Below are positions 4,589 to 16,639 of a DNA stretch of 20,663 nucleotides, piece by piece. The stretch's first letter is position 1; each line of letters begins with the position of its first letter. Where the stretch lies: the IMG/VR virus record IMGVR_UViG_3300037069_000305, positions 1 through 20,663 of that record; one strand, 5' to 3'. This stretch comes from a virus. The notes under the pieces are model-generated. The model was not told the origin of the DNA and searched no databases. It worked only from the letters and a program-made list of their open reading frames with translations. Made by a program: the position numbers and the translations under genes.

Positions 4589-6001
4589 ATGAAGAACATC
4601 CGCCTCATCGTTTTCGCCCTGCTGGCCGTCTGCGCGCTCGTCGCGGGCCTGCAGCTGGGCTTCGACTCCACTTCGTTCGCGTTCAACGCCCTCATGGCGC
4701 TGGGCGTGGCAGTGGCCCCGCTGTTCAAGCGCAACGGCGACCTGTCGCTCTACGCCTGCGAAACCGACCCGGTGGCACTGGTCAAGACGCTGGCGGATGA
4801 CCTCCGCACCGCGCGCACCGAACTGACCAAGCAGCAGGGCGAGTTGAAGGACGCCCACGCGGAAGTGATGAAGTCGATCACGACCGGCGTGAAGCTCGAC
4901 AAGGAAACCCAGGACAACATCGACAAGGCGATTGCGACCGCCAACGACCAGGCCACCATCGTCAAGGATGTGGCGCAGAAGTTGGAGGACATCCAGAAGT
5001 CCGTCGATGCGCAGAAGACCATCCCGTTCCTGTCGGCCGGTGGCCAAATCCTCAAGCAGCTGGAAGGCAACTTGAAGGAATCGCTGGCCAAGCTGCGTGA
5101 CCGCGAGCAGGGCAAGCTGGTCATCAAGGATGTCATCAACAGCGGCAGCGTCAGCACCGGCATGAAGCGCGAGCCGTACATCGACTCCCTGGTGTCGATG
5201 GAGCGCCAGCCGTTGCGGCTCATCAGCCTGTTGACCACCATCCCGGTGCAGACCGACAGCGTGAAGTTCGGCAAGCAGACCTTGCGTACCAACGCGGCCC
5301 GCATCGTTGCCGAAGGTACGCCGAAGCCGTACAGCGAGTACAAGTGGGAGAACGACACCGCGATCATCGAAGTGCTCGCCCACCTGTCCAAGCTGTCCCT
5401 GCAGGCGCTCGCCGACGCCCCGCGCCTCGCGGCCGAGGTCGAAGCCGAAATGGAATTCGGGCTGGCGCTGGCCGAGGAATGGGAAGTCATCAACGGCGAC
5501 GGTTCCACCGGTCACCTGTCGGGCCTGATCCACAACGCGACTGCGTACGCGATCCCGGCCGGCATGGATACCGATGGCGTCCTGACCCCGGTGGATCGCC
5601 TGCGCGTGGCCATGCTGCAAATCCACTTGGCCTATGCGGTGCCGGACGGCCACGTCCTGAACCCGATCAACATGGCCGAAATCGACCTGCAGCGTCGTGA
5701 CCCGGATGGCAGCGGTGGCTACCTCTACAGCGCGCCGGACGAGAACACTGGCGTTTCGCGCCTGTGGCGTCTGCCGACCGTCGAGACCCCGACCATCGCG
5801 GTTGACAAGTTCCTGACCGGTGCCTTCAAGTACAGCGCGCATCTGTACCGCCGCCAGGGTTCCACCGTCCAGATCAGCACCGAGAACGACAAGGACTTCG
5901 AGAACAACGAAGCCACCATGCGCTGCGAATCGCGCCTGGGTCTGGGTGTGCGTCGCCCGTACGGCATCGTTTACGGTGACCTCAAGAGCGGCGGCTCCTG
6001 A
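4589..6001 (+). CDS. Major capsid protein, HK97 fold, with hydrophobic N-terminus
   Basis: This 470-aa protein has three parts. Residues ~176-470 are the HK97-fold shell protein: an N-arm near SGSVSTGMKREPYID, an E-loop/P-domain around RIVAEGTPKPYSEY, INGDGSTGHLSGL, and a C-terminal FENNEATMRCESRLGL strand. Residues ~55-175 are a charged, helical, coiled-coil-like delta/scaffold region (DDLRTARTELTKQQGELKDA and following), presumably removed by the upstream protease, which would leave about 290 residues. Residues 5-24 and 30-46 are two strongly hydrophobic stretches separated by FDSTS. Such a membrane-like leader is not usual for capsid proteins. The start is firm: AAGGGG lies at 4577-4582, six bases before the ATG. 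A later in-frame ATG at 4694 would remove most of the leader but has no comparable Shine-Dalgarno. A terminator hairpin follows. Confidence 0.95.
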   Translation: MKNIRLIVFALLAVCALVAGLQLGFDSTSFAFNALMALGVAVAPLFKRNGDLSLYACETDPVALVKTLADDLRTARTELTKQQGELKDAHAEVMKSITTGVKLDKETQDNIDKAIATANDQATIVKDVAQKLEDIQKSVDAQKTIPFLSAGGQILKQLEGNLKESLAKLRDREQGKLVIKDVINSGSVSTGMKREPYIDSLVSMERQPLRLISLLTTIPVQTDSVKFGKQTLRTNAARIVAEGTPKPYSEYKWENDTAIIEVLAHLSKLSLQALADAPRLAAEVEAEMEFGLALAEEWEVINGDGSTGHLSGLIHNATAYAIPAGMDTDGVLTPVDRLRVAMLQIHLAYAVPDGHVLNPINMAEIDLQRRDPDGSGGYLYSAPDENTGVSRLWRLPTVETPTIAVDKFLTGAFKYSAHLYRRQGSTVQISTENDKDFENNEATMRCESRLGLGVRRPYGIVYGDLKSGGS

Positions 6002-6002
6002 T

Positions 6003-6034
6003 CGTTAGCGTTACCGTTACTGCTGTGCTAGAGT
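6003..6034 (+). promoter_or_regulatory. Weak candidate promoter with hexamer repeats
   Basis: Three near-identical hexamers stand in tandem at 6003-6020 (CGTTAG, CGTTAC, CGTTAC). Downstream is an extended -10-like element, TGC followed by TAGAGT at 6029-6034 (four of six consensus bases). A poor -35 match, TTAGCG at 6005-6010, lies 18 bases away. If active, it would start transcripts near 6040 and drive the glycosyltransferase cassette independently of the head operon. This is pattern matching only. Confidence 0.22.
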
Positions 6035-6063
6035 GGGGCCACCTAACCAGTGGCCCCATTTTT
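6034..6063 (+). terminator. Rho-independent terminator after the capsid gene
   Basis: A perfect nine-base stem (TGGGGCCAC at 6034-6042, GTGGCCCCA at 6050-6058) with a seven-base loop is followed directly by five T residues (6059-6063). It lies 32 bases after the capsid stop and ends exactly at the ATG of the next gene. It should stop or reduce transcription between the highly expressed capsid gene and the accessory glycosyltransferase genes. Confidence 0.85.
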
Positions 6064-7464
6064 ATGCGCATCGGAATTGGCGTTACCAGTCATAACCGCC
6101 ATGAAGTAACTCGCAAGACGTTGGAACAGATCAAGCGGCGGTTGCCTGCCGGCGCGACGCTAGCGGTCGTGGACGATGCCAGCACGATAGAACCGTTGTT
6201 CTTTGTCAACTATCGTTTCGACACCAACGTCGGCATCGCACGCGCGAAGAACAAGTGCCTGGAATTGCTTGACGGCTGCGACCACATCTTCCTGTTTGAT
6301 GACGACACGTTCCCCATCGCTGACGATTGGTGGAAACCGTACGTCGAGTCGCCCGAAGCACACCTGATGTATATCTTCGAAGACTTCGCGGACGGCAAGC
6401 AGCTGTTCGACACAGCACGCGTGTACGACGACGGGCAACACATCGCTTACTCCCACGCTCGCGGCTGCATGTTGTACTTCAAGCGGCGTGCGCTCGATGC
6501 AGTCGGCGGCTTCGACCCGGCGTTCGGCAAGTGGGGCCACGAACACATCAACCTGAGCGACCGCATCAACGCAGCGGGCCTGACGACGTTCCCGTACATG
6601 GATGTCGCCGGCAGCAACAAGCTGATCCACTCGGGCGATGAGCATCGCAACGTCCACACGACGGTCCCCGGCAGCGAGCGCGGCAAGTGCCTCACGCGCA
6701 ACCTCAAGCTCTACGATGAGCGCGGCGGGATGCCGTACTACGTCGAGTATCGTGCGCCGGAGGGCGGGCAGCATGACGCGGTGCTGTGCTGCTATTTCGT
6801 CGGGATGGTTGACCCGCAGCGCGGCGAAGGCTGGGTGGCCAACTCGTCGGAACTTACAGTGCTGGTTGAAAGTGTCGATGCAGTAGCCCCAACAGCATGT
6901 TTGGCGATCCTCAACAATGCGTCGGTTGCGGCGGTGCTGGGCGGCGTGGAAGTCCCCACTGGCAAAGTGTCGCCCTACTGGCAGCGTTGGATTTCGTTGT
7001 ATCAATTCCTCATGGCCAACCCCAACCTGCGCAACGTCTGGTGCGTGGACGCCACCGATGTCGAAATGCTGCGCAACCCGTTCGATTCGATGGAACCAGG
7101 CGTCCTCTACGTCGGCGATGAGCAGGGTACCAAGCTGGGCATCCCGTGGATGTTTTCGAACCATCCTTCGCGCACGCTGCAGCTGTTCTTCCGCCAGAAC
7201 GCGAATCTACCGTTGCTCAACTGCGGTGTGCTGGGTGGCTCGCGCGACATCGTGATGGAGTTCATCCGCAAGCTGCTGGTGGCCTACGCGAAGAACCGCG
7301 AGGACATGAAGTACAAGCGCGATGCGAGCGTGGGCGAAATCGACATGGGGCTGTTCAACTGGATCGCGCACACGATGCGCCACCGGATCGTGCATGGCCC
7401 CAAGGTCACCACGAAGTTCAAGGCGTTCAAGGACAACGGCACCGCATGGTGGAGGCACAAGTGA
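6064..7464 (+). CDS. Two-domain glycosyltransferase (GT-A, family 2-like, plus second transferase-like domain)
   Basis: This 466-aa protein is predicted to transfer sugars from nucleotide-sugar donors. Residues 1-235 form a GT2-like GT-A domain: IGVTSHNR at the start, VVDDAS (35-40), NVGIARAKN (55-63), the metal-binding DDD in FLFDDDTFP (D79-D81), and KWGHEHINLSDR (156-167), which resembles the catalytic-base/acceptor motif of GT2/GT27 enzymes. Residues ~265-466 look like a second nucleotide-sugar-transferase fold: VWCVDATDVEMLRNPF (326-341, a D329/D332 pair), YVGDEQG and LPLLNCGVLGG (382-392). The start at 6064 fits the fold, although no Shine-Dalgarno precedes it; a GTG at 6025 would add 13 residues across the hairpin. 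Its place between capsid and neck genes suggests virion proteins as acceptors, as reported for some actinobacteriophage glycosyltransferases. That target is inference. Confidence 0.85.
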   Translation: MRIGIGVTSHNRHEVTRKTLEQIKRRLPAGATLAVVDDASTIEPLFFVNYRFDTNVGIARAKNKCLELLDGCDHIFLFDDDTFPIADDWWKPYVESPEAHLMYIFEDFADGKQLFDTARVYDDGQHIAYSHARGCMLYFKRRALDAVGGFDPAFGKWGHEHINLSDRINAAGLTTFPYMDVAGSNKLIHSGDEHRNVHTTVPGSERGKCLTRNLKLYDERGGMPYYVEYRAPEGGQHDAVLCCYFVGMVDPQRGEGWVANSSELTVLVESVDAVAPTACLAILNNASVAAVLGGVEVPTGKVSPYWQRWISLYQFLMANPNLRNVWCVDATDVEMLRNPFDSMEPGVLYVGDEQGTKLGIPWMFSNHPSRTLQLFFRQNANLPLLNCGVLGGSRDIVMEFIRKLLVAYAKNREDMKYKRDASVGEIDMGLFNWIAHTMRHRIVHGPKVTTKFKAFKDNGTAWWRHK

Positions 7465-7703
7465 AAACGAAGAACCCGGCTGTTCCTGCAGTGGCGCAAG
7501 GCAAACGAGCGAGTTTCGTGGTGGTCGATGAACTGATCGAGCAGTCGCCAGTCCCCAAAGGCAAGTGGCGTTGCCACCGCTGCAAAACGATCAACAAGGA
7601 CAGCCACCGCTACTGCGATAGTTGCTTCAACGAACCGACCGCAGGGCGACGCGACATCGACCCCGAAGGCCGCAAGTTCAATCCAGACCCAGGGCACGAC
7701 TGA
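7461..7703 (+). CDS. Small protein with a RanBP2-type zinc finger
   Basis: This 80-aa protein starts at GTG 7461, chosen because GGAGG lies at 7451-7455 and the codon overlaps the stop of the glycosyltransferase (GTGA); an in-frame ATG at 7446 is upstream of that Shine-Dalgarno. Residues 36-55 match the RanBP2/ZnF_RBZ consensus exactly: W36-x-C38-x2-C41-x3-N45-x6-C52-x2-C55. In eukaryotes this fold binds RNA or ubiquitin. In a phage it may be a DNA/RNA-binding or protein-docking zinc ribbon, perhaps an adaptor for the flanking transferases. The rest is short, polar and probably unstructured (basic N-terminus, RRDIDPEGRKFNPDPGHD tail). Function is unknown; the pattern is directly visible. Confidence 0.75.
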   Translation: MKTKNPAVPAVAQGKRASFVVVDELIEQSPVPKGKWRCHRCKTINKDSHRYCDSCFNEPTAGRRDIDPEGRKFNPDPGHD

Positions 7704-7704
7704 C

Positions 7705-8322
7705 ATGCAAATCATCATCGTTTCGCACTACAAGCGTTCCGACTGGGTGCGCAAGTTGCTCGACGTGTTCCCCGGCGCGTTCGTCGTCGTGGACTTCCTT
7801 GACCGTGGCGCGCTGTGGGCGCACACCGAAGCGATCAAGCTCGCCGCGATGCTCAACGAGCGTTGCATCATCATGGAAGACGATGCGATACCGGTGGAGG
7901 GGTTCGCGGACTTGGCGGCCCGCTGGTATCACTGGTATCCAGACGAACTCATCAGTTTCTACCTTGGGACGGGTCGCCCGAAGGCATGGCAAGACTGGAT
8001 AACGGGCGCATTCAACAAGGGCGCGATGGTTAGCGATTCTGACGGTTGGGTGCGGCTTCCCGCCCTCATCCACGGCGTCTGCTACACCTTCCCGCCCGAC
8101 CAAGCCCAAGCCATCGGCGACGGCCTCAAGCGGCTCAACGGCAGCGTCAAAGAGGCTGATACAGCCGTGGGCAAGGCTTGGGGCAAGCCGGTGCTGTATC
8201 CGGTAGAATCGCTGGTGGAACACCGGGACCAGGGTAGCGTCGAGCGGCATCCAGATGGCCAACCGCGCACCGAACCCCGTGTTGCTCGCTTCCTTGCTGG
8301 CCCACTCGCTTACCCAAGGTGA
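7705..8322 (+). CDS. Small glycosyltransferase-like protein
   Basis: This 205-aa protein opens with a Rossmann-like strand (MQIIIVSHYKR) and carries CIIMEDDAIP (residues 54-63). That is the 'LEDDxxP' metal/nucleotide-sugar motif of GT25- and GT2-like transferases (E58, D59, D60). Further family-like features are EADTAVGKAWG (150-160) and VLYPVESLVEHRDQGSV (163-179), the 'YP.SLVxHxxxxS' ending typical of small phage and LPS transferases. It follows the zinc-finger gene by one base and reads into the neck genes with three bases between, so it shares their transcript. It probably acts with the upstream transferase on the same glycan or on another acceptor. Donor and acceptor cannot be read from sequence. 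No strong Shine-Dalgarno is present. Confidence 0.75.
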   Translation: MQIIIVSHYKRSDWVRKLLDVFPGAFVVVDFLDRGALWAHTEAIKLAAMLNERCIIMEDDAIPVEGFADLAARWYHWYPDELISFYLGTGRPKAWQDWITGAFNKGAMVSDSDGWVRLPALIHGVCYTFPPDQAQAIGDGLKRLNGSVKEADTAVGKAWGKPVLYPVESLVEHRDQGSVERHPDGQPRTEPRVARFLAGPLAYPR

Positions 8323-8325
8323 CCT

Positions 8326-8802
8326 ATGGCAATCATCGAACTCGCAGTAGCCCTTGCGCACGTGAAGGCCGACGATGAGGCGGTCGAAGACCCGTTGTTC
8401 GCCCTCTACCTCGACAGCGCGCAGTCCATCTGTGAGGGCTACTGCAACCGCAACTTCTACGAGGACGACACCGCTCGATTCCTCGCGTTCGACGCGGGCC
8501 TGGTGGCGCTGCAGGAAGCGACCGACTGGTACAACGACAAGCTGGACACGTCGCCACGCTGGGAAGCCGTCGCCGCTGCTGGTGACAGCTACATCCAGCG
8601 TCGCGGCACCGCGCTGCGCGCCATCAACGGGTGCGTCGCCGATGGCACCATCAAGGCCGCCATCCTGCTGACCTTCGGCCACCTGTATCGCAACCGGCAA
8701 GACAACATCGTCGGCCAGCAGTCGGCAGTGCAGCTGCCGGTAGGTGCCCAGCGCATCCTGCAGCCGTACCTGTGGATCGGTGACTTGGCAGGAGGCTCCT
8801 GA
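8326..8802 (+). CDS. Head-tail connector, HK97 gp6-like
   Basis: This 158-aa protein is predicted to form the adaptor ring under the portal. The N-terminus has the family pattern ALAHVKADDEAVEDPLFALY followed by a helix ending EGYCNRNF. The C-terminal half has TIKAAILLTFGHLYRNRQ and a final LPVGAQRILQPYL, equivalent to the 'IPAAIKxAILxLVGHWYENRE ... P.GV..LL.P' signature. It is longer than the ~100-aa minimal members because of an alanine-rich insert (residues ~45-105). It is the first gene after the accessory cassette, where connector genes normally follow the capsid gene directly. The stop overlaps the next start (TGATG). Confidence 0.88.
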   Translation: MAIIELAVALAHVKADDEAVEDPLFALYLDSAQSICEGYCNRNFYEDDTARFLAFDAGLVALQEATDWYNDKLDTSPRWEAVAAAGDSYIQRRGTALRAINGCVADGTIKAAILLTFGHLYRNRQDNIVGQQSAVQLPVGAQRILQPYLWIGDLAGGS

Positions 8803-10046: not shown

Positions 10047-10712
10047 ATGCAGTATTTTCCGAACGGTGCCAAGTTCGCGGTCGCGACCACGATGAGTCTC
10101 GCTTCCGCCATCAGCGACATCAGCAACGCCAACCCGGCCGTCGCCAGCGCAGTCGTGCTGCCCGATGAAATGGACATCATCTTGCTCGATTCGAACTGGA
10201 CCGACCTCGCGGACCAGCCGACCTACGCCACGGATGTCGGCGGCGGCGCGTTCACGCTGGCCAAGATCGACACCACCGATACCGGCGTTTACTTCCCCGG
10301 CGAAGGCGAGGGCAGTTACAAGATTCCGGGCGACTTCGTGACCGTCAGCCAGATTCGCGAAGTGAACACCAGCGGCGGCGACGCCAATTTCTTCAACTGG
10401 GGTTACGTCGATGATTCGTCCACGCGCACGCGCTCGCGGCCGACCGACACCAACCCGCTGCAGCTGACCCTGACGCTCGACTGGGACCCCGACAAGCCCT
10501 GGGCCGACGCGCTGGAACTGCTGTCGAAGAAGCGCATCCCGACCGTCCTGCGTGAGCGTCTTTCGACCGGCGACATCCTGCTGTACGCGGGCTATGTCTC
10601 GTACCAAAAGGTGCCCTCCCACACCCGCAACGAGAACATGACCGTGACGGCCGTGATGACGATCAACTCCGATCCGATTCGCTTCCCGCCCGAGTTCTTC
10701 GGCGGCTCGTAA
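10047..10712 (+). CDS. Major tail tube protein
   Basis: This 221-aa protein is predicted to polymerise into hexameric rings forming the tail tube. Sequence support is a beta-rich protein with EMDIILLDSNWTDLADQP and PTYATDVGGGAF near the N-terminus, a central DPDKPWADALELLSKKRIP, and the late RNENMTVTAVMTINSDPIRF strand, a tail-tube layout related to lambda gpV-type proteins. It lacks an obvious C-terminal Ig-like domain. Context is decisive: it follows the tail terminator and precedes the frameshifted chaperones and tape measure. A strong ribosome binding site and two hairpins immediately downstream point to separate control of its dose. It is a plausible acceptor for the glycosyltransferases encoded upstream, which is inference. 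Confidence 0.85.
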   Translation: MQYFPNGAKFAVATTMSLASAISDISNANPAVASAVVLPDEMDIILLDSNWTDLADQPTYATDVGGGAFTLAKIDTTDTGVYFPGEGEGSYKIPGDFVTVSQIREVNTSGGDANFFNWGYVDDSSTRTRSRPTDTNPLQLTLTLDWDPDKPWADALELLSKKRIPTVLRERLSTGDILLYAGYVSYQKVPSHTRNENMTVTAVMTINSDPIRFPPEFFGGS

Positions 10713-10801: not shown

Positions 10802-11167
10802 ATGGCACTTACCGAAAGCACGCCGGAGACAATCAAGGCGTCACTCAAGATCACAGGGCGCGGTGTGGTACAGAACCTTGAGTTGACCTACAAGAACCGC
10901 GATGAGGAAGAAATCGAGGAGTTCACCCGCAACGAACAGAATTTCAAGTTGCCGGAGTCGATCAAGGACAACTCGCTCGATGCTTTCAGATGGGGCAACG
11001 CACAGATGGTGCTGTTCCTTGTCGAGTCGTTCGATGACGGCACCGACAAGACTTACCCTCTCACCGTCGATGGCCTCTTGAAGATGGAAAAAAAGTGGAA
11101 GGGCGTGCTGCGGGGCATTGTTACTGGCTTCCACCAGGCACAGCAGGTCGAAGTCGAAAAAAACTGA
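10802..11167 (+). CDS. Tail assembly chaperone, zero-frame product (gpG-like)
   Basis: This 121-aa acidic protein is the upstream partner of a gpG/gpGT-type chaperone pair, which coats the tape measure and recruits tube subunits during tail assembly and is absent from the finished virion. The start at 10802 has a GAGGGA Shine-Dalgarno; an upstream in-frame ATG at 10739 lies inside the terminator stem and is rejected. The sequence begins MALTESTPETIKASLKITGR, has an EEEIEEFTRNEQNFKLPESI segment and ends QQVEVEKN at TGA. The last sense codons, GAA AAA AAC, form the slippery site described separately. Size and position fit the family; the primary sequence alone would be weak. Confidence 0.82.
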   Translation: MALTESTPETIKASLKITGRGVVQNLELTYKNRDEEEIEEFTRNEQNFKLPESIKDNSLDAFRWGNAQMVLFLVESFDDGTDKTYPLTVDGLLKMEKKWKGVLRGIVTGFHQAQQVEVEKN

Positions 11168-11202
11168 AAGAGGCGGTCGCTGAATTGTTCTGGCGACCGC
11201 CT
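11158..11202 (+). other. Programmed -1 ribosomal frameshift signal
   Basis: The heptamer A AAA AAC (11158-11164) is in the right phase (X XXY YYZ) at the very end of the chaperone gene, directly before its TGA (11165-11167). After a six-base spacer comes a perfect ten-pair stem: AGGCGGTCGC (11171-11180) with GCGACCGCCT (11193-11202) and a 12-base loop. Slippage to -1 reads the overlapping frame to 11487. This is the best-known bacterial slippery heptamer with a stimulatory stem at the usual distance. Confidence 0.92.
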
Positions 11203-11487
11203 ACGAACGAAACGATCGCTAAGTACAGGGGTGCGAAGACCTCTAGAGATTTCCCCGAACCAGTTGTTGCAGTGTGGCTAGAGAACGTCAATGCAGTAAG
11301 ATGGTTCCGGCAGTCGATAACTCAGTTCAACTATGCGCAGCACGGCGCGACGGGATTCAACTACGCGGTGGCGTATCGCGATTTTGACGACATGGGTTTG
11401 GTTGGCGTCGAACGCGACACCTGGAAGCGGAAGTTGAGAGTCATGGAAGCCGCTGCACTTGAACAGATCAACATGCCCTCCGAGTGA
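11164..11487 (+). CDS. Tail assembly chaperone, -1 frame extension (gpT-like, DUF1799-like)
   Basis: These 107 codons have no convincing start of their own and should be made as the C-terminal part of a 228-aa fusion after -1 frameshifting at 11158-11164; the joint reads EVEKK then LKEAVAELFW. The sequence resembles DUF1799: VVAVWLENVNAVRWFRQSIT, QHGATGFNYAVAYRDFDDMG, and a final RKLRVMEAAALEQINM. In lambda the T domain binds the tail tube protein while G binds the tape measure, so the fusion bridges the two. A TTG at 11185 with a distant AGAGG is a much poorer explanation. The stop codon lies inside the following hairpin. Confidence 0.88.
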   Translation: MKEAVAELFWRPPTNETIAKYRGAKTSRDFPEPVVAVWLENVNAVRWFRQSITQFNYAQHGATGFNYAVAYRDFDDMGLVGVERDTWKRKLRVMEAAALEQINMPSE

Positions 11488-14500: not shown

Positions 14501-15102
14501 GCGATGAAGTGAGCGATGTCAGTGCCCACGCTGAAAAGGTCACCACGGCATCGCTCGATGCGATCACCGACCTCACGACCGATGCGTTGACGGGCAACCT
14601 CAAGAGTTGGGGCGACTACTTCGACGGCATCGCCTACATGATTACGCAGTTCATCGTGAAGCAGCAGTTGACCAAGTGGATCGAAAGCATCGGCAAGTCC
14701 ACCAGTGGTAACGCTGGCGGCGGTGGCTTTTGGGGCATGGCTGCAGGCTTCCTGTCGGGCATCCTGGGCGGCGCTGGTACTGGCGGCGGCACGGTGGCGT
14801 CCACGGGCGCTGGTGGCCCTACGGTTGGCCCCATGTTCGACAGGGGTGGCTTCACTGGCCACGGCAACGACAACGATATCGCGGGCTTCGTGCACAAGAA
14901 CGAATACGTGGTACCTGCGCCGGTAGTGCGTGCCATTCGTTCCGGTCGTTCGATGGGCGCTGGTGGCGCTACCAGCGCAGCACGTGGGCCGGTGACGATC
15001 ATCCAGAACAACTCGTTCCCGCTGGCATCCGACCGTACGACGCGCGAGCAATACTTGCGCGGTCAAGCGAAGCAAACCAACAAGGCACTGGCGAAGGTAT
15101 AA
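11512..15102 (+). CDS. Tail tape measure protein (lambda gpH-like)
   Basis: This 1196-aa protein sets tail length and is ejected ahead of DNA. ATG 11512 is chosen over GTG 11509 because GGAGG (11501-11505) is six bases upstream. Order: N-terminal helical region beginning GSIGAARINLVVDASDYTSE; a two-copy 62-residue tandem repeat (170-231 and 232-293); the gpH-type segment LPAQFTDIGVSLAGGMNPLL (from 405) with a hydrophobic stretch TPITAATAVVAALAYTAY (about 460-477) likely to enter the inner membrane; long coiled-coil, Gln/Arg-rich helices (about 750-1000); the lambda-type C-terminal motif LDAITDLTTDALTGNLKSWG (from 1015); a Gly-rich linker; and GGFTGHGNDNDIAGFVHKNE (from about 1112), the usual 'GG.TG.G....G.VH..E.V' tail. 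No lytic domain is evident. Confidence 0.95.
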   Translation: MANGEGSIGAARINLVVDASDYTSELKRAQNAAAEFGNAAEEAFGRSEGRSRSAQKRLLDYVAALGNASSEQRQFLSLLNKASGAGASDAVLKAATKGFNEYASSVELAKIKTEAWEQGQKRAMTAARGLADEVRRSGDNAAKAANERARAYVEGRATQQAANSQSQFNSLLGVNERDALAQAKRRADAEAAILPFLQQQERELEQQLALAHQINNARDEQVQRSAQLGINSQLGVTERDLAAQAQRRADAEAALLPILQKQEQELERQLQLTKQIDAARDAHVQNSAQSSINSLLGVQQPRSGQYLADQRRVVEALQAQVAAEDAVEAEAREIHRQWTAINKEVVAATSNMGHYDRARANALQQFGPVNAKPIIDQINALEKANTTIRGTTVNAKQLQQAIRFLPAQFTDIGVSLAGGMNPLLVAFQQGGQILDQFRLAGATTGDTFRMIGSYAAKLVTPITAATAVVAALAYTAYDAAKAMENLAIAGAKGFGQAGSAEQLYALTEGLNQLQNIRLGPAEEAVARLAAGGRLVGENMQLAAEATARWSSLTGEAVDQVAAQFEAIAKDPLQAIESGLVRVTEAQYNQVRALVVVGNQQEAVNLLTKIWYDTINGNSAQVESHLSSVSRVLQGIKDDFGEATRGAGDFFNNIIDNVGVTRSKLIALKGPIAALMDPSFWQADAPKVAAKTGGGTAQLFDPAAAQRAKAQALEVATYLATADENAQRQITRNRIIADGERLKIDSATTAQIIARQDKLWAAADAKKNKSGRGGTGARTAAKDVRYDYQLESALLQTQTREVQAAYAVKQITAEAYYESLIKFAKQEFDIQKRSNAEQLAAIAGKKGQEHEVARLRVADAIAEQQLAQRTIDIQSQQAQYMERLTQERFAYSNALQHNVEMQQEEYDIALKRMTIADREFERWNAENEIRREGIRLQEEVSRWAEENPNQVEEGQRRAQEALDATNAKLEQMAQAYANIDAAQADWAVGATKAWENWRDEVSDVSAHAEKVTTASLDAITDLTTDALTGNLKSWGDYFDGIAYMITQFIVKQQLTKWIESIGKSTSGNAGGGGFWGMAAGFLSGILGGAGTGGGTVASTGAGGPTVGPMFDRGGFTGHGNDNDIAGFVHKNEYVVPAPVVRAIRSGRSMGAGGATSAARGPVTIIQNNSFPLASDRTTREQYLRGQAKQTNKALAKV
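12019..12390 (+). repeat. 186-bp tandem duplication inside the tape measure gene
   Basis: Two adjacent in-frame units, 12019-12204 and 12205-12390, encode 62-residue copies. Both start with S-x-LGV-x-ERD, contain RRADAEAA-x-LP-x-LQ and QELE/RELE with QL, and end in NSAQ or RSAQ then three residues to IN. A third copy begins at 12391 (SLLGVQ) but breaks off after five residues. Copies differ at many codons, so the duplication is old or diversified. Confidence 0.88.
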
Positions 15103-15104
15103 CC

Positions 15105-15701
15105 ATGCAGAACTTCATTGACCATCAGCTGAGTCTCCGCGCGTCGCGCGAGTTCCGCCGCGTCAGCCAAGGGCGCACCGAACACGTGCCGATGGACAAT
15201 GGCGAAGACATTTATAACGCCAAGTGGCGCTATCGCCGGATGCGGTACTTTGCGTCGTTCGCCTTGGTCACGCCGGAGACTCAAGCGGAACTCACGGGTG
15301 CGAACCATGCTGCGATGTCGATGCTGCTGTTGTTCCGCTTCCGCGACCCTGGTGACTTCCAGGTGGTCGATTCGCCGCTCACGGTGGCCGCTGGCACCAA
15401 GACGCCCATCCAGCTGACCAAGCGCTACTACTTCGGCCCGAGTTCCTACGGCGACCGCATGATCCAGGCGGTTGACCACGCGGTCGTCAAGACGCAGGCC
15501 GGCGTGGAAGTCCCCGGCACGCTGGACAAGGTGCTGGGCCTGTTTACGCCAACGAACAACTGGGCGGCCACGCCGCACAAGTGGAGCGGGCGCTACTGCG
15601 TGTGGGTGCGCTTCGCTTCCGACGACTTCGATTCGACCATGCTAACCTTGGACATATCGACCGCCGACGTTGAACTGCAGGAAGGACGCGCTCACCGATG
15701 A
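15105..15701 (+). CDS. Distal tail protein, DUF2460-like (GTA gp12-type)
   Basis: This 198-aa protein is predicted to form the ring (Dit) joining tail tube to hub. It matches DUF2460/TIGR02217 features: an N-terminal segment with REFRRVSQGRTEHVPM, RYRRMRYFASFALVTPETQA, then RFRDPGDFQVVDSPLTVA, TKRYYFGPSSYGDRMIQAV and a final VWVRFASDDFDSTMLTLDIS. The 'R.F...F.F.D..DF' core strands are characteristic. AAGG at 15094-15097, seven bases before ATG 15105, fixes the start. The stop overlaps the next ATG. This and the next three genes keep the order of gene-transfer-agent tail genes 12 to 15. Confidence 0.88.
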   Translation: MQNFIDHQLSLRASREFRRVSQGRTEHVPMDNGEDIYNAKWRYRRMRYFASFALVTPETQAELTGANHAAMSMLLLFRFRDPGDFQVVDSPLTVAAGTKTPIQLTKRYYFGPSSYGDRMIQAVDHAVVKTQAGVEVPGTLDKVLGLFTPTNNWAATPHKWSGRYCVWVRFASDDFDSTMLTLDISTADVELQEGRAHR

Positions 15702-16639
15702 GCAAGAGCATCCCAATCACCCTGCAGGAAGACTACGCTGGCCATGCGCTGACGCACTGGCACATCGTTCGCATCCGCACCAAGGACGGCCAGCTGTTCG
15801 GGTTCACCGATGGTGACGTGGCGGTCGAGTACGACGCTGCCCCCTTCGTCGATGCCGACGACAATGAGATTCCCGGCGACGACTTCGGGATGATGACGCA
15901 CATCGCCGAGAATGGCGGCATCACGTTGTCGAAGGTCGAATCAGGCTCGGATTTGACGGTCAACAACGGCGAGTTCAAGACGGTCCCGAACGACGACACG
16001 ATCACGCCAGAAAAGATGCTGGCTGGGTTGCTCGACTCGGCCGAAGTGTACGTGTACCGCATCAACTTCATGGACTTGTCGCGCGGGCACGAACTGCTGC
16101 ACTACGGTTACGGTGACACCGCTCGCATGTCCGACATGCAAGCCATCACCGCGTTCCGCTCGATGTCGGATCGGCTCAAAGAAACCGAAGTGGAGTTGTG
16201 GAGCAAGACATGCCCCTCCGTGTTCGGTGGACCGAAGTGCCCGAAGGAACTGGTGTGGATCGACGTTGACGTAACCGGCGTGGATGAGGACGAGCCGACC
16301 AGGATTTTCGGTGTGAGCGCGTCGCCTGCAGACAACTTCTACAAGTACGGCATCGCGCGCTGGGTCGATGGTGACAATGCGCCGAAGGAATACGACGTTG
16401 AGCGCAATGTTGCTGGAACCATCGTGCTACTACTCGACATGGACTTCCAAGCGAAGATCGGGGATCGGGTGCAGCTGCGGGAAGACTGCAGCAAGGTGTA
16501 TGACGACGCAGAACATGGTTGCTTGCATCACTGGGGCGAAGTGGATCGCAATCTGCATCACCGTGGTTGCCCCGATATTCCCACGGCCGATGGCGGGTCT
16601 TCGATGATCCCCGGAAACAACATGGAGAGCGACGAATGA
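15698..16639 (+). CDS. Tail hub protein, DUF2163-like (GTA gp13-type, putative Fe-S)
   Basis: This 313-aa protein is predicted to form the trimeric hub between Dit and the tip. The N-terminal half has the DUF2163 pattern HWHIVRIRTKDGQLFGFTD, ENGGITLSKVESGSDLTV and AEVYVYRINFMDLSRG. The C-terminal half matches the Phage_BR0599-like part. Five cysteines sit late in the protein: C172, C181, C264, C275 and C291. The family and lambda gpL, which bind an iron-sulfur cluster, use four cysteines with similar distribution, so C172/C181/C264/C275 are the likely ligands. The usual family ending 'GN..NFRGFPHIPG' appears here as RNLHHRGCPDIP. Starts within an ATGA overlap, with AAGGA at 15682-15686. Confidence 0.88.
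   Translation: MSKSIPITLQEDYAGHALTHWHIVRIRTKDGQLFGFTDGDVAVEYDAAPFVDADDNEIPGDDFGMMTHIAENGGITLSKVESGSDLTVNNGEFKTVPNDDTITPEKMLAGLLDSAEVYVYRINFMDLSRGHELLHYGYGDTARMSDMQAITAFRSMSDRLKETEVELWSKTCPSVFGGPKCPKELVWIDVDVTGVDEDEPTRIFGVSASPADNFYKYGIARWVDGDNAPKEYDVERNVAGTIVLLLDMDFQAKIGDRVQLREDCSKVYDDAEHGCLHHWGEVDRNLHHRGCPDIPTADGGSSMIPGNNMESDE

What the first reader, a model, noticed from the sequence alone, without database searches (positions are those of the whole stretch)
6064..8322. Glycosyltransferase / zinc-finger / glycosyltransferase cassette inserted between capsid and neck genes
In HK97-like phages the connector gene normally follows the capsid gene directly. Here 2.26 kb of non-structural genes separate them: a fused two-domain transferase, a zinc-finger protein coupled to it by a GTGA overlap, and a second small transferase. 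A terminator sits at the upstream edge. The gene order suggests a self-contained virion-modification module, with the capsid or tail tube protein as likely acceptor. That two transferases flank a docking-type zinc finger suggests a complex rather than independent enzymes. Known: some phages glycosylate capsid and tail tube proteins with enzymes encoded near structural genes. The three-gene set is not one I recognise.
Basis: partly seen in the sequence, partly recalled or inferred. Interest (0 to 1): 0.78.

Follow-up and report, generated by a model that had tools for sequence, protein, structure and literature searches.

The report
Capsid-side phage glycosyltransferase cassette
Between its shell gene and its neck gene this bacterial virus carries two sugar-attaching enzymes that travel as a pair in hundreds of other phages; one of them is related to an enzyme reported to be needed for putting sugars on a mycobacteriophage shell, so the cassette probably sugar-coats the virus particle, while the small zinc-finger gene between the two enzymes is found nowhere else we searched.

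Summary
In detail: 6064-7464 GT1, 7461-7703 zinc-ribbon protein (GTGA overlap), 7705-8322 GT2, between capsid and head-tail adaptor, behind a strong hairpin plus T-run. The three-gene reading does not hold: the zinc-ribbon gene has no relative in any collection searched. GT1 (PHROG 1579) and GT2 (PHROG 854) are a known, near-obligate pair: GT1 lies beside GT2 in 80/85 viral and 29/34 genomic GT2 loci. The junction is a variable slot (nothing, HNH nucleases, kinase, methyltransferases, pyruvyl transferase). Searching with the adaptor alone, all seven close relatives carry GT2 in the same interval, behind different upstream enzymes (PHROG 1579, 8858, 1962); their GT2s form one clade, so the partner is exchanged while GT2 stays. 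GT2 is homologous to Che8 gp110 (30%, E=2e-18), reported essential for capsid glycosylation, and Che8 gp108 is related to the 8858 partner. Best explanation: a virion-glycosylation cassette with a constant transferase (perhaps acting on the capsid or tail tube) and an exchangeable partner. Acceptor and enzyme order are inferred. The hairpin also follows capsid genes in relatives without a cassette. New variant of a known kind; interest moderate.

The parts
4589..6001 (+). major capsid protein (HK97 fold family), upstream neighbour and one candidate acceptor
   Evidence: Pfam Phage_capsid 7e-32; PHROG 10
6030..6062 (+). intrinsic-terminator-like hairpin with T-run ending at the GT1 start codon; feature of the capsid gene's 3' end
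   Evidence: MFE -21.9, z -3.9; similar hairpins after the capsid in L010, L012, L013, L014, L291 and in GT-less relatives
6064..7464 (+). GT1: predicted two-domain GT-A glycosyltransferase, PHROG 1579; conserved DDD (79-81), EH (160-161), D-x-x-D (329-332)
7461..7703 (+). 80-aa protein with one RanBP-type zinc-ribbon motif, translationally coupled to GT1; no relative found
7705..8322 (+). GT2: single GT-A glycosyltransferase, PHROG 854, GT25-like fold, invariant EDDA (58-61); homologue of Che8 gp110
8326..8802 (+). head-tail adaptor Ad1, downstream neighbour
   Evidence: PHROG 40, 2.8e-17
10047..10712 (+). major tail tube protein, alternative candidate acceptor
   Evidence: Pfam Phage_tail_3 4.7e-38, PHROG 584

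Best explanation
The locus is a phage virion-glycosylation cassette. Two soluble GT-A enzymes, made late from the structural operon, put a short glycan on a major virion protein (capsid and/or tail tube). GT2, the constant enzyme, most likely acts on the protein acceptor. GT1, a two-domain enzyme, most likely builds the rest of the glycan, and in relatives of this phage it is replaced at the same site by unrelated partner transferases that would give a different glycan. The zinc-ribbon gene is a private insertion at the GT1/GT2 junction and is not part of the conserved machinery. Shown here: identity of the genes, near-obligate pairing, variable junction, fixed site with exchanged partners, and homology of GT2 to Che8 gp110. 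Inferred: protein acceptor, which enzyme acts first, and the sugar.
For: GT1-GT2 pairing in GT2-anchored searches: 80/85 viral and 29/34 genomic loci; 73/80 in GT1-anchored ones. Adaptor-anchored search, which does not select for GTs: all seven close relatives (L010, L011, L012, L291-L294) have GT2 immediately upstream of Ad1. Partner enzymes are PHROG 1579 (window, L012), 8858 (L010, L291, L293, L294) and 1962 (L011). These GT2s form one supported clade of seven (SH-aLRT 95), with window grouped with L010 and L291 (99) although its partner differs. GT2 v. Che8 gp110: 30% over 199 aa, E = 2e-18; the L010 partner v. Che8 gp108: 39% over 190 aa, E = 3e-36. PMC12363180 reports Che8 gp110 and Corndog gp38 as essential for capsid glycosylation, and glycosylated capsid and tail-tube proteins. 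In ENT47670 and about 14 related loci the pair follows the major tail protein. The junction slot holds methyltransferases, a pyruvyl transferase or an APH-like kinase in other phages, fitting a glycan-tailoring operon. GT2's model resembles collagen hydroxylysine galactosyltransferase and LH3. Neither GT has a strong transmembrane segment.
Against: No glycan or acceptor was observed. In many Enterobacterales phages the pair lies between lysis and terminase genes, not beside a virion gene, so position alone does not name the acceptor. The experimental claim for Che8 is taken from citing papers; the primary paper (Freeman 2023) is not held. Window GT1 itself is not clearly homologous to Che8 gp108 or gp109 (best E = 0.002). 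GT25-like folds also act on lipo-oligosaccharide. The order GT2-first is a guess from its constancy.
Confidence: 0.72

Rival explanations
1. The pair modifies the host surface (LPS or capsule) during late infection or lysogeny, blocking superinfection, like the O-antigen gtr clusters.
For: GT2-type and GT25-like enzymes are common in LPS and exopolysaccharide synthesis. The pair sits in prophages of many Enterobacterales.
Against: No flippase and no membrane-anchored transferase beside it; neither protein has a transmembrane segment. The same pair occurs in mycobacteriophages, whose hosts lack LPS. Late structural position.
Confidence: 0.15
2. The enzymes glucosylate modified phage DNA, as in T4.
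For: PHROG names GT2 'glucosyltransferase'; GT1 has a trace match to PHROG 842, a beta-glucosyl-HMC-alpha-glucosyltransferase (E = 0.05).
Against: GT2 is predicted GT-A, GT25-like, whereas T4 DNA glucosyltransferases are GT-B (own knowledge). No hydroxymethyl-pyrimidine synthesis genes in the window, although it holds only 20.7 kb of an incomplete genome.
Confidence: 0.05
3. The zinc-ribbon protein is a genuine third component that docks the two transferases to each other or to the capsid.
For: Tight translational coupling (GTGA, embedded GGAGG) and an intact four-cysteine motif. A different small zinc-ribbon protein with a membrane segment occupies the slot in L107.
Against: No homologue in phages, viral contigs, plasmids or 369 genomes of the class of Luteimonas; absent from all relatives, where GT1 and GT2 usually abut. 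The L107 protein is alike only in having a zinc ribbon.
Confidence: 0.1

Closest known systems
Mycobacteriophage virion glycosylation, e.g. Che8 gp108-gp110 and Corndog gp38 (Freeman et al. 2023, known here through PMC12363180 and PMC11256854)
   Same: GT2 is homologous to Che8 gp110, the last of a row of adjacent GT genes. The partner in sister phages (L010, L291) is homologous to the N-terminal domain of Che8 gp108. Many mycobacteriophages carry window-type GT1 plus GT2.
   Different: Here the cassette lies between capsid and connector in a probable proteobacterial phage, not at the right genome end; the window's GT1 is not a gp108 or gp109 homologue; a zinc-ribbon gene is inserted.
GT1-GT2(-HNH) morons of Hendrixvirinae and related phages (HK542, mEp390, ENT39118, AsXd-1)
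   Same: Same two families in the same order; GT1 and GT2 overlap in HK542 and ENT39118.
   Different: Placed between lysis and terminase genes and often followed by HNH; GT1 about 41% and GT2 39-43% identical to the window's. AsXd-1 has an HNH gene in the junction.
Cronobacter phage ENT47670 and relatives
   Same: Same pair, placed directly after a major virion gene, the tail tube.
   Different: Tail-tube rather than capsid neighbour; no inserted zinc-ribbon gene.
GT25 family (collagen hydroxylysine galactosyltransferase, LOS glycosyltransferases)
   Same: Predicted GT2 fold matches these structures and many viral GT25 annotations.
   Different: No sequence-level Pfam match; TM-scores only about 0.5-0.6 to solved structures.

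Membership tests
PHROG 1579 glycosyltransferases | Full-length profile match | tested here: met
   E = 2.1e-157, residues 2-466 to profile 21-482/482
PHROG 854 glucosyltransferases | Full-length profile match and invariant EDD motif | tested here: met
   E = 8.1e-40, residues 2-195; E58-D59-D60 invariant in 14 sequences
Mycobacteriophage (Che8-type) virion glycosylation | Homologue of gp110, reported essential for capsid glycosylation | tested here: met
   30% identity over 199 aa, E = 2e-18; role from PMC12363180
Mycobacteriophage (Che8-type) virion glycosylation | Homologues of partner enzymes gp108/gp109 adjacent | tested here: not met
   Window GT1 best E = 0.002 to gp108; sister phages L010 and L291 do have a gp108 homologue
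Mycobacteriophage (Che8-type) virion glycosylation | Covalent glycan on capsid or tail-tube protein | not testable with these tools
   Needs mass spectrometry of virions
GT25 fold family | GT-A fold closest to GT25 members | tested here: met
   Foldseek: mimivirus R655, LH3 and COLGALT1 among the top hits, E 1e-6 to 1e-4; many viral GT25 annotations
GT25 fold family | Sequence-profile match to the family | tested here: not met
   No Pfam or NCBIfam match for GT2
O-antigen gtrABC seroconversion cluster | Flippase and membrane-bound bactoprenol glucosyltransferase | tested here: not met
   No hydrophobic 19-residue segment above 1.7 in either GT; no such neighbours
RanBP2-type zinc finger proteins | Pfam Zn_ribbon_RanBP above curated cut-off | tested here: inconclusive
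   20.8 bits v. cut-off 27, E = 2e-4; motif W-x-C-x2-C-x10-C-x2-C intact

The most novel reading that the evidence does not exclude
In this phage lineage the capsid-connector interval is a dedicated 'glycotype' locus: a constant transferase matched to the virion acceptor stays, while the upstream enzyme is exchanged between unrelated families, so closely related phages carry different surface glycans, comparable to serotype switching but on the virion.
Probability: 0.4. Interest if true: 0.68.

Novelty: new variant of a known kind. Interest (0 to 1): 0.5.

Why it matters
As far as the papers found here show, virion glycosylation by phage-encoded enzymes has been demonstrated in only a few mycobacteriophages. 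The evidence here places homologues of the key enzyme, nearly always with a partner enzyme, across phages and prophages of Enterobacterales and other Proteobacteria, including cultured laboratory phages such as HK542 and ENT47670 where it could be tested directly. The fixed site with exchanged partners gives a concrete hypothesis for how phages diversify surface glycans and which enzyme sees the protein.

Tried and rejected
Zinc-ribbon homologues by tblastn (phages, plasmids), viral-contig scan and 369 genomes: none; short proteins are hard to find, so absence is not proof. The terminator as a module boundary: rejected, since hairpins follow capsid genes in 20 of 57 loci tested, mostly GT-less ones (0.3 expected from shuffles). 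The promoter/terminator scan missed the 6030-6062 hairpin, apparently because its stem counting absorbs part of the T-run, so it was folded directly. An extended -10-like TGTGCTAG just before the hairpin, similar in window, L010 and L012, was left as a note. PDB sequence search with GT profiles: nothing significant. Adaptor and GT2 relatives in 395 genomes of the Luteimonas family: no close relative of this phage, host unresolved.

Full report
Observation. A hairpin of -21.9 kcal/mol (z = -3.9) with a T-run stands directly before GT1's ATG. In distant capsid relatives without GTs the capsid-to-adaptor distance is about 0.4-0.7 kb, against 2.3 kb here.

What the two large genes are. GT1 matches PHROG 1579 end to end and the Pfam galactosyltransferase-7 C domain above its cut-off. 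Its predicted model (pLDDT 68, to be read with care) matches dual-domain GT-A polymerases over both halves, and blood-group-type GT-A enzymes over one stretch of about 230 columns. Conserved acidic motifs lie in both halves. GT2 matches PHROG 854, folds confidently (pLDDT 87) as a single GT-A domain closest to collagen galactosyltransferase, LH3 and mimivirus R655, and has an invariant EDD.

They are a pair. In GT2-anchored searches, GT1 lies next to GT2 on the same strand in 80 of 85 viral loci and 29 of 34 genomic loci. In GT1-anchored searches, 73 of 80 have GT2. These sets contain near-copies, mycobacteriophages above all. In about half of the GT2-anchored loci the two abut or overlap; otherwise the gap holds HNH endonucleases, an APH-like kinase, methyltransferases, a polysaccharide pyruvyl transferase or small unknown proteins. 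The window's zinc-ribbon gene is one such insertion and has no relative in phages, plasmids, viral contigs or 369 genomes. L107 has a different, membrane-anchored small zinc-ribbon protein in the same slot.

The site. A search with the adaptor alone, which does not select for GTs, returned seven close relatives; every one has GT2 just upstream of the adaptor (L292 is cut by the contig end). The upstream partner differs: PHROG 1579 in window and L012, 8858 in L010, L291, L293 and L294, 1962 in L011 (L011's contig begins inside this gene, so more could lie upstream). The GT2 tree puts these seven GT2s, the window's included, in one clade (SH-aLRT 95; L292 was too short) and joins window to L010 and L291 (99), which have the other partner. 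The simplest reading is partner exchange at a fixed site beneath a constant GT2; by hand count at least two exchanges, three if L011 is counted.

Link to experiment. PMC12363180, citing Freeman et al. 2023, reports that mycobacteriophages glycosylate capsid and tail-tube proteins and that Che8 gp110 and Corndog gp38 are essential for capsid glycosylation; PMC11256854 reports glycans on Che8 and Rita capsids. Window GT2 and Che8 gp110 align over 199 residues at 30% identity, E = 2e-18. The PHROG 8858 partner of L010 aligns with Che8 gp108 at 39% over 190 residues. Window GT1 has no clear Che8 homologue, so the window matches the Che8 system in GT2 but not in the partner. The primary paper was not available.

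Mechanism. Most likely GT2 acts on the virion protein and GT1 extends the glycan: GT2 is the constant member, its fold is close to protein-glycosylating GT25 enzymes, and its homologue is the one reported as essential. This order is inference. In ENT47670 and related loci the pair follows the tail-tube gene, so the tail tube is as good a candidate acceptor as the capsid. In many Enterobacterales phages the pair sits between lysis and terminase genes, so position is only a hint.

The terminator. Hairpin plus T-run directly after the capsid gene is found in all six capsid-site GT loci checked and also in many GT-less relatives (20 of 57 loci in all v. 0.3 expected by shuffling). It belongs to the capsid gene's end and does not delimit the cassette.

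Verdict. Real, and partly as interpreted. The virion-modification idea is well supported by homology; the three-part docking complex is not. New variant of a known kind: known enzymes at a capsid-side site with exchanged partners.

Noticed in passing
window 10805-11487: Tail assembly chaperone pair with a classic -1 slippery heptamer A AAA AAC (11158-11164) directly before the TGA of the upstream frame; the downstream frame (11095-11487) continues as the usual G-GT fusion.
   Followed up: partly
window 6022-6034: Extended -10-like motif TGTG-C-TAGAGT just upstream of the post-capsid hairpin, with similar motifs in L010 and L012. A start there would make a transcript lacking the hairpin's 5' arm, which could insulate the downstream genes from capsid transcription.
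   Followed up: partly
L142 6307-6969, L206 2166-2828, L207 3901-4563: Polysaccharide pyruvyl transferase (PF04230, tested for L142) gene between GT1 and GT2; hints at pyruvylated virion glycans.
   Followed up: partly
L310 2172-3347 (Che8 gp108): Che8 gp108 appears to be a fusion of a PHROG 8858-like GT domain with a macrocin-type methyltransferase domain (read by eye from the sequence); a free methyltransferase of PHROG 21658 sits in the GT1/GT2 slot of L219.
   Followed up: no
L132, L133, L134: GT1 (PHROG 1579) without GT2, downstream of a protease-type gene and, in L132 and L134, upstream of the portal gene.
   Followed up: no
window 15099-16639: The ORF at 15099-15698 hits a PHROG labelled glycoside hydrolase, in the usual place of a minor tail gene, followed by a tail assembly protein.
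   Followed up: no
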